From an uncultured Treponema sp. (GTDB taxonomy: Bacteria; Spirochaetota; Spirochaetia; Treponematales; Treponemataceae), in contig CAMCRZ010000012.1 of assembly GCA_945877425.1 (NCBI GenBank), positions 1 through 64,000 on the forward strand: 64,000 nt of DNA, in the 5' to 3' direction. A program made the translations under genes and the position numbers. This document shows positions 67-1,054 of this stretch, one piece after another; position 1 is the first letter of the stretch, and every line of letters starts with the position of its first letter. The notes under the pieces are model-generated. The model searched no databases, had not been told where the DNA came from, and saw nothing but the letters and a program-made list of their open reading frames with translations.

Positions 67-447
67 TTATTTTGCTTGATCTTCTTCAATTTTTGAAGAT
101 TCCTTTTTCTTTCCAATAAATAAAGAAAGTAAAAACAAACCAGCAAAAATAAAATTCAATGTTCCATAGATCTTCAAATCTGAAAAACTACCATACATTG
201 CACTTGCAACTAAACCTGCAACAATGTAAAAACACATTGCAGTTATTGTTGCACCTTTGCTTTTTCTTCCTGCAATACTTATAATACCTGCTACAAGCAT
301 CAGAATTGCTGTGAAAAAGCCTGCAGACCCAGAAACTTCGCCTGAATCTTCGAAGGCATTACCTATTCCTACTGCACATGACTGAAATACAATCACCATA
401 AATAAGCAGCAACAAATAATGCCGCACACCATTCTTAATGTTTTCAT
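67..447 (-). CDS. small four-helix membrane protein, unknown function
   Basis: A 126-residue, strongly hydrophobic protein with about four predicted membrane segments separated by short loops and a charged, lysine/glutamate-rich C-terminus (KKKESSKIEEDQAK), so it is probably an inner-membrane protein with a cytoplasmic tail. I do not recognise the family. The ATG at 447 is chosen because a strong ribosome site (GGAGG) lies 5-6 bases upstream; an in-frame ATG at 480 would fall inside the promoter described below. It is the last minus-strand gene before the left edge. Its distinguishing feature is a 14-base G run in the promoter, which suggests on/off or graded switching by slipped-strand mispairing. 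The function is not inferable; the coding call itself is good. Confidence 0.75.
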   Translation of the reverse strand: MKTLRMVCGIICCCLFMVIVFQSCAVGIGNAFEDSGEVSGSAGFFTAILMLVAGIISIAGRKSKGATITAMCFYIVAGLVASAMYGSFSDLKIYGTLNFIFAGLFLLSLFIGKKKESSKIEEDQAK

Positions 448-476
448 AAAAACCTCCGTATTATTTTTATGTAGAA

Positions 477-511
477 ACAATACCCCCCCCCCCCCCGCCT
501 GTTTTTGTCAA
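477..511 (-). promoter_or_regulatory. promoter with a poly-G spacer, candidate phase-variable switch
   Basis: On the minus strand a perfect -35 box TTGACA (511-506) is followed by a nine-base stretch and 14 consecutive G, then a -10-like TATTGT (482-477). The spacer is 23 bases here; a tract of 8 G would give exactly 17. The promoter feeds the gene starting at 447. The arrangement resembles poly-G controlled promoters known in Treponema pallidum (for example TP0126). That this copy varies in length is inference. Confidence 0.6.
483..496. repeat. homopolymer tract, 14 C on the plus strand (14 G on the minus strand)
   Basis: This is an uninterrupted run of 14 identical bases in an otherwise AT-rich intergenic region, between a -35 and a -10 element. 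Tracts of this length are hypermutable by slippage, and the count in an assembly may be a consensus of a mixed population. Confidence 0.95.
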
Positions 512-517
512 GTAATT

Positions 518-1054
518 TTAAAATATTTCTTTTATGTCTGTTTTTTTGAATTTTCCGGAGGCGATGGCTGTCATGACTTTTTCTTTGTCAAGTTTTGATT
601 TGTCGGGAAAATTACTGCACTCAATCATAAAGCGCTGCCAGTTAAATCTGGAAAGATAAAGCTGAACTTCTTTATAATCTTTTTCCCTTACGGCTGCTGC
701 AGTTAGCGAAAGGAGCACGTCGGCTGCGAAAAAATCTTCTGCCGTAAGATTTATTTTGTAAGGATAAATTGTTCCGTAACACTCAGCTGTACTTTCACAA
801 ATGCACGTTACGGCAAATGCCATATTTTTTGGAACTGCAAGATTTATTTTTCCGCCAAAACTTTTTAAGCTGGAAAGAGAACCGTCTTCGCTGATGTAAA
901 AAAATTCCCACTGATTTTTTTCTGTGAGAGTTTGGTTTTCGGAAGAAGCGGCTTGTAAATTAAAAGTTACATCTTCTGTTTCTTCAAAAAAGCTGCACGA
1001 ACAAACTACTGCTGTAACGGCAAAAATTAAAAGGACAAAAATATTTTTCTTCAT
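518..1054 (-). CDS. hypothetical lipoprotein
   Basis: A 178-residue protein with a lysine-initiated hydrophobic signal and a lipobox-like end (VVCSC, cysteine near residue 18-20), so it is probably lipidated and anchored to a membrane. The remainder has no motif I recognise: a beta-rich middle and a charged C-terminal part. The ATG is preceded by an AGGAT ribosome site. It lies upstream of, and in the same direction as, the small membrane protein at 67-447, but a separate promoter with a poly-G tract lies between them, so the two need not be co-expressed. Confidence 0.75.
   Translation of the reverse strand: MKKNIFVLLIFAVTAVVCSCSFFEETEDVTFNLQAASSENQTLTEKNQWEFFYISEDGSLSSLKSFGGKINLAVPKNMAFAVTCICESTAECYGTIYPYKINLTAEDFFAADVLLSLTAAAVREKDYKEVQLYLSRFNWQRFMIECSNFPDKSKLDKEKVMTAIASGKFKKTDIKEIF

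What the first reader, a model, noticed from the sequence alone, without database searches (positions are those of the whole stretch)
477..511. Poly-G tract between -35 and -10 of a membrane-protein gene: likely phase-variable promoter
Seen: perfect TTGACA, nine bases, 14 G, TATTGT on the minus strand, upstream of a gene with a strong ribosome site. The spacer is 23 bases; eight G would give the optimal 17, so slippage should tune or switch expression. Known: T. pallidum uses G tracts in promoter regions of tpr genes and TP0126. The controlled protein here is a small four-helix membrane protein with no recognised family.
Basis: partly seen in the sequence, partly recalled or inferred. Interest (0 to 1): 0.75.

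Follow-up and report, generated by a model that had tools for sequence, protein, structure and literature searches.

The report
Slippery poly-G promoter in a treponeme
A run of 14 Gs sits between the two RNA-polymerase contact boxes of a bacterial promoter, so copying slips should change the box spacing and tune a small membrane protein up or down, as already reported for one gene of the syphilis spirochete; related bacteria carry hundreds of promoters of this layout, mostly in front of secreted or surface proteins.

Summary
It is far beyond chance. The same genome has a second promoter of this layout (TTGACA-N8-G11-TACAAT) before an exported, barrel-like protein. In 274 genomes of the family, TTGACA-N-G7+-TANNNT occurs 311 times in 116 genomes, against one hit for the reversed control. 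Spacers cluster at 15-20 nt, tract length and the rest of the spacer compensate each other, and about 90% of well-placed downstream genes encode exported proteins, mostly lipoproteins (24% in flanking genes). Orthologous promoters keep both boxes while the tract changes (G9/G13/G15; G9/G12). The T. pallidum TP0126 promoter, reported to be optimal at 17 nt, has the same layout. Best reading: a TP0126/porA-type phase-variable promoter, caught at a 23-nt spacing that predicts weak or no activity. Tract variation and expression at this locus could not be tested. It is a new member of a known kind; the breadth of the class across treponemes is the more interesting part.

The parts
506..511 (-). -35 box TTGACA (perfect consensus)
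497..505 (-). non-repeat part of the spacer, AAAACAGGC (9 nt)
   Evidence: same length as in the TP0126 promoter, TCGACA-AACAGCCGT-G9-TAGAAT
483..496 (-). poly-G tract, 14 G, abutting the -10 box
   Evidence: longest of six G tracts of 8 or more in the genome
477..482 (-). -10 box TATTGT
453..458 (-). ribosome binding site CGGAGG
67..447 (-). gene P0001: 126-aa protein with four hydrophobic helices, no recognised family, nearly restricted to this species
518..1054 (-). upstream co-directional gene, 178-aa putative lipoprotein, ending 6 nt before the -35 box with no terminator found between; read-through could bypass the switch

Best explanation
It is a sigma-70-type promoter whose spacer is a slippable G tract next to the -10 box. 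Replication slippage adds or removes G, changing the -35/-10 distance by 1 bp a step and so the fit of RNA polymerase: strongest near 17-18 nt (8-9 G here), weaker on either side. The assembled state (14 G, 23 nt) should be weak or OFF; losing about 4-6 G should switch it ON. The output is a small four-helix membrane protein. Shown: boxes, tract, ribosome site, gene, the family-wide class with constrained spacing, and tract differences between orthologous promoters in related species. Inferred: slippage in this species, promoter activity and its dependence on length.
For: Second promoter of the same layout in this genome. 311 sites in 116 of 274 family genomes, 12 of 20 genera, against 1 for the reversed pattern (sum). 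In 151 sites, 131 spacers are 15-20 nt although 10-29 were allowed; tract and non-G part are anticorrelated (rho -0.22, p 0.008) and spacer variance is 4.6 against 8.0 for the summed parts. Orthologous promoters with both boxes conserved and different tracts: L039 G13 / L041 G9 (93% DNA identity), L034 G15, L060 G12 / L032 G9 (91%). Downstream genes with a well-placed start: 88 of 97 exported, 62 with a lipobox, against 27 of 111 flanking genes, p about 1e-23. TP0126, reported optimum 17 nt (PMC7864442), has TCGACA-N9-G9-TAGAAT. T. pallidum clones vary at 24 of 46 poly-G/C tracts of 8 or more (PMC10013896).
Against: No reads, isolates or RNA of this species were available. The 23-nt spacer lies in the tail (2 of 151 at 23 or more). 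P0001 is an inner-membrane-like four-helix protein, unlike the lipoproteins and outer-membrane proteins typical of the class. P0001 has no intact relative in 274 genomes, and 29 homologues of the second poly-G gene lack a tract, so conservation at orthologous sites cannot be shown for this genome. Read-through from the upstream gene may mask the switch.
Confidence: 0.8

Rival explanations
1. A live promoter, but the tract only fine-tunes or is drifting; P0001 is mainly transcribed by read-through from the upstream lipoprotein gene, so tract length has little phenotypic effect.
For: Upstream gene is co-directional and ends 6 nt before the -35 box; no terminator found between. The 23-nt spacing is far from optimal.
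Against: Perfect TTGACA, the -10 and ribosome site at standard distances, and the recurrence of the same layout before exported genes family-wide.
Confidence: 0.12
2. A relic: a former switch stuck OFF by over-expansion of the tract, before a species-specific, possibly dispensable gene.
For: Spacer of 23 nt is in the extreme tail; P0001 is nearly an orphan, and the only relative found is a 5'-truncated remnant.
Against: Open frame intact with an excellent ribosome site; boxes undamaged; tracts of 13-17 G with normal spacing exist elsewhere in the family.
Confidence: 0.06
3. Tract length is an assembly artefact, or the boxes are a chance match around a G tract.
For: The window's genome is a 42-contig assembly and homopolymers are error-prone; the tract lies about 0.5 kb from a contig end.
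Against: Chance of such flanks is about 7e-5 per tract and two of six tracts have them; 311 against 1 family-wide. An error of a few G would not remove the feature.
Confidence: 0.02

Closest known systems
Treponema pallidum TP0126 (OmpW homologue) promoter; Giacani et al. 2015, as described in PMC7864442
   Same: G tract between -35 and -10, abutting the -10, preceded by a 9-nt non-repeat stretch; start codon soon after; same bacterial family
   Different: TP0126 has TCGACA and 9 G (18-nt spacer) in the genome read here; it encodes an outer-membrane barrel. Here TTGACA, 14 G (23 nt), and a four-helix membrane protein. Length dependence is reported for TP0126, untested here.
Neisseria meningitidis porA promoter (poly-G between -35 and -10; described in PMC7864442)
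   Same: spacer-length mechanism
   Different: unrelated organism and gene
T. pallidum tprE/G/J and tprL poly-G promoters
   Same: G tract of varying length upstream of a membrane-protein gene

Membership tests
TP0126/porA-type spacer poly-G promoter | G tract lies wholly between recognisable -35 and -10 boxes | tested here: met
   chance about 7e-5 per tract
TP0126/porA-type spacer poly-G promoter | spacing can pass through the 16-18 nt optimum by change in G number alone | tested here: met
   9 + 8 = 17 nt; family spacers centre on 15-20
TP0126/porA-type spacer poly-G promoter | tract length varies between cells or isolates of the species | not testable with these tools
   one genome per species; other orthologous promoters in the family differ in tract length
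TP0126/porA-type spacer poly-G promoter | promoter output depends on tract length | not testable with these tools
   needs reporters or RNA
TP0126/porA-type spacer poly-G promoter | controls an envelope protein | tested here: met
   four hydrophobic helices, so a membrane protein, though not shown to be surface-exposed
tprL-type poly-G promoter | tract overlaps the -10 region, so -35/-10 spacing is unchanged by slippage | tested here: not met
   tract lies inside the spacer; definition from PMC7864442

The most novel reading that the evidence does not exclude
Spacer poly-G promoters are a family-wide contingency system of the treponemes, most of them not T. pallidum: up to about 20 independently slipping promoters per genome, mainly driving secreted lipoproteins and outer-membrane proteins, with tracts gained and lost gene by gene, so that a clonal population displays many surface combinations.
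Probability: 0.6. Interest if true: 0.6.

Novelty: new member of a known kind. Interest (0 to 1): 0.45.

Why it matters
In T. pallidum this switch has been worked out for one gene of an organism that is hard to grow. If the class works the same way across its relatives, surface phase variation by promoter-spacer slippage becomes testable in easier treponemes, and is not tied to a pathogenic life style. It also gives a sequence rule (TTGACA-N-Gn-TANNNT) for finding candidate phase-variable surface genes in metagenomes.

Tried and rejected
Orthologues of P0001 to test tract conservation: only a 5'-truncated remnant in one genome. Homologues of the second poly-G gene: 29 of 29 without a tract in 150 nt upstream (one search was a first attempt with wrong strand handling, disregarded). 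Homologues of the upstream gene: no G/C tract of 7 or more in those loci. Another copy of this locus in viral contigs: none. Hairpin at the promoter: not significant, z -1.3. Standard 16-18 nt promoter for P0001: none found on the minus strand in the gap. Original TP0126 and tpr papers are not held, so their results are cited through PMC7864442 and PMC3373638.

Full report
Observation. On the minus strand: TTGACA (511-506), AAAACAGGC, G14 (496-483), TATTGT (482-477), CGGAGG, ATG at 447. The spacer is 23 nt; eight G would give 17. It is the only G or C run of 7 or more in the window, the longest of six G tracts of 8 or more in the genome, and G8 runs are expected 0.11 times in shuffled windows. 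The rate of perfect TTGACA and of TANNNT in the window gives about 7e-5 for such flanks around a given tract.

The same genome. Of the other five tracts, one (contig C26, G11) is in the same layout: TTGACA-GGATACGC-G11-TACAAT, then AGGAGG and the start of a 164-aa exported, barrel-like protein with no Pfam family. The remaining four, of 8-9 G, are in or near coding sequence. So the two longest tracts of the genome both sit in promoter spacers.

The family. TTGACAN{3,22}G7TANNNT was searched in 274 genomes of the family: 116 genomes have it, in 12 of 20 genera, with 311 sites in all (summed), up to 20 in one genome; the pattern read backwards gives one. Tract length and the non-G part are anticorrelated and the spacer varies less than its parts would. 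The -10 hexamers are ordinary (TATAAT, TAATAT, TAAAAT lead). This is what selection on spacing of real promoters would leave; it was not shown by transcripts.

What they drive. For 123 fetched loci plus this genome's two, the first well-placed gene (start within 110 nt, ribosome site) is exported in 88 of 97 cases, 62 with a lipobox; flanking genes: 27 of 111. The classifier is a simple hydropathy and lipobox rule of mine, and related genes within a genome are not independent, so the p-value (about 1e-23) overstates the certainty; the effect size is large. P0001 itself is one of the few exceptions: four hydrophobic helices. A cysteine after its first helix (FQSC) might be a lipobox, which I did not test.

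Tract change between species. Three orthologous promoters of one secreted protein keep CTTGACAAAAT and TAATATA while the tract has 13, 9 and 15 G; two of these loci are 93% identical in DNA over 529 bp. A second pair (91% over 527 bp) has 12 and 9 G; a third (93%) has 9 and 9. This shows change over species time, not switching within a population, and assembly error in homopolymers cannot be excluded.

T. pallidum. In a 1.1-Mb genome of the family (G032) the promoter of the gene that I take for TP0126, by its position and its exported protein of about 223 aa, reads TCGACA-AACAGCCGT-G9-TAGAAT, 18-nt spacer; a second gene with a similar protein start 8 kb away has TCGACA-N10-G9-TAGAAT. Published work reports optimal TP0126 transcription at 17 nt (PMC7864442) and length variation at 24 of 46 poly-G/C tracts among Nichols clones (PMC10013896). 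The tprL tract overlaps the -10 and is a different layout.

Wider distribution. A scan of genome contigs with tracts of 11 or more stopped at its limit with 115 stretches: Clostridia, Bacilli, Saccharibacteria, Planctomycetes, Helicobacter, gut Alphaproteobacteria and others. The layout is thus probably a recurring device of bacteria. No reversed control was run there.

Turnover. P0001 is almost confined to this species. Of 29 homologues of the second poly-G gene none has a tract. Tracts seem to be gained and lost gene by gene.

Mechanism. Slippage changes spacing, spacing changes polymerase binding and so output. At 14 G the promoter should be weak or OFF; it needs to lose about 4-6 G. The upstream gene ends 6 nt before the -35 box without a detected terminator, so read-through is an open rival.

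Prior work. Homopolymeric tracts as regulators (PMC2831843) and their counts in treponeme genomes (PMC8049484) are published. In the open-access library I found no survey of spacer poly-G promoters across treponemes; most subscription papers are not held.

Noticed in passing
L006:1501-1509 and 1718-1726 (G000 contig C10:2370-2378 and 2587-2595): Two G9 tracts inside what looks like a split cytosine-DNA-methyltransferase gene, with an in-frame TEQNR-type tandem repeat nearby: a possible coding phase-variable methyltransferase.
   Followed up: no
L019:1501-1508: G8 tract just after the lipobox cysteine of a large lipoprotein (CSDGGGSDD): a possible frameshift switch.
   Followed up: no
L261 (G032:C1:156835-156847): A gene with a TP0126-like start and a second TCGACA-N10-G9-TAGAAT promoter.
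   Followed up: partly
L148, L155, L217, L219: Gut Alphaproteobacteria and a Butyrivibrio bin share TTGACAGT/A-G11-13-TANNNT with the chosen start codon 34-38 nt downstream: perhaps one repeated promoter cassette, or bin contamination.
   Followed up: no
L092 and L093 (G097): An identical poly-G promoter and 237-aa exported protein occur on two contigs of one genome.
   Followed up: no
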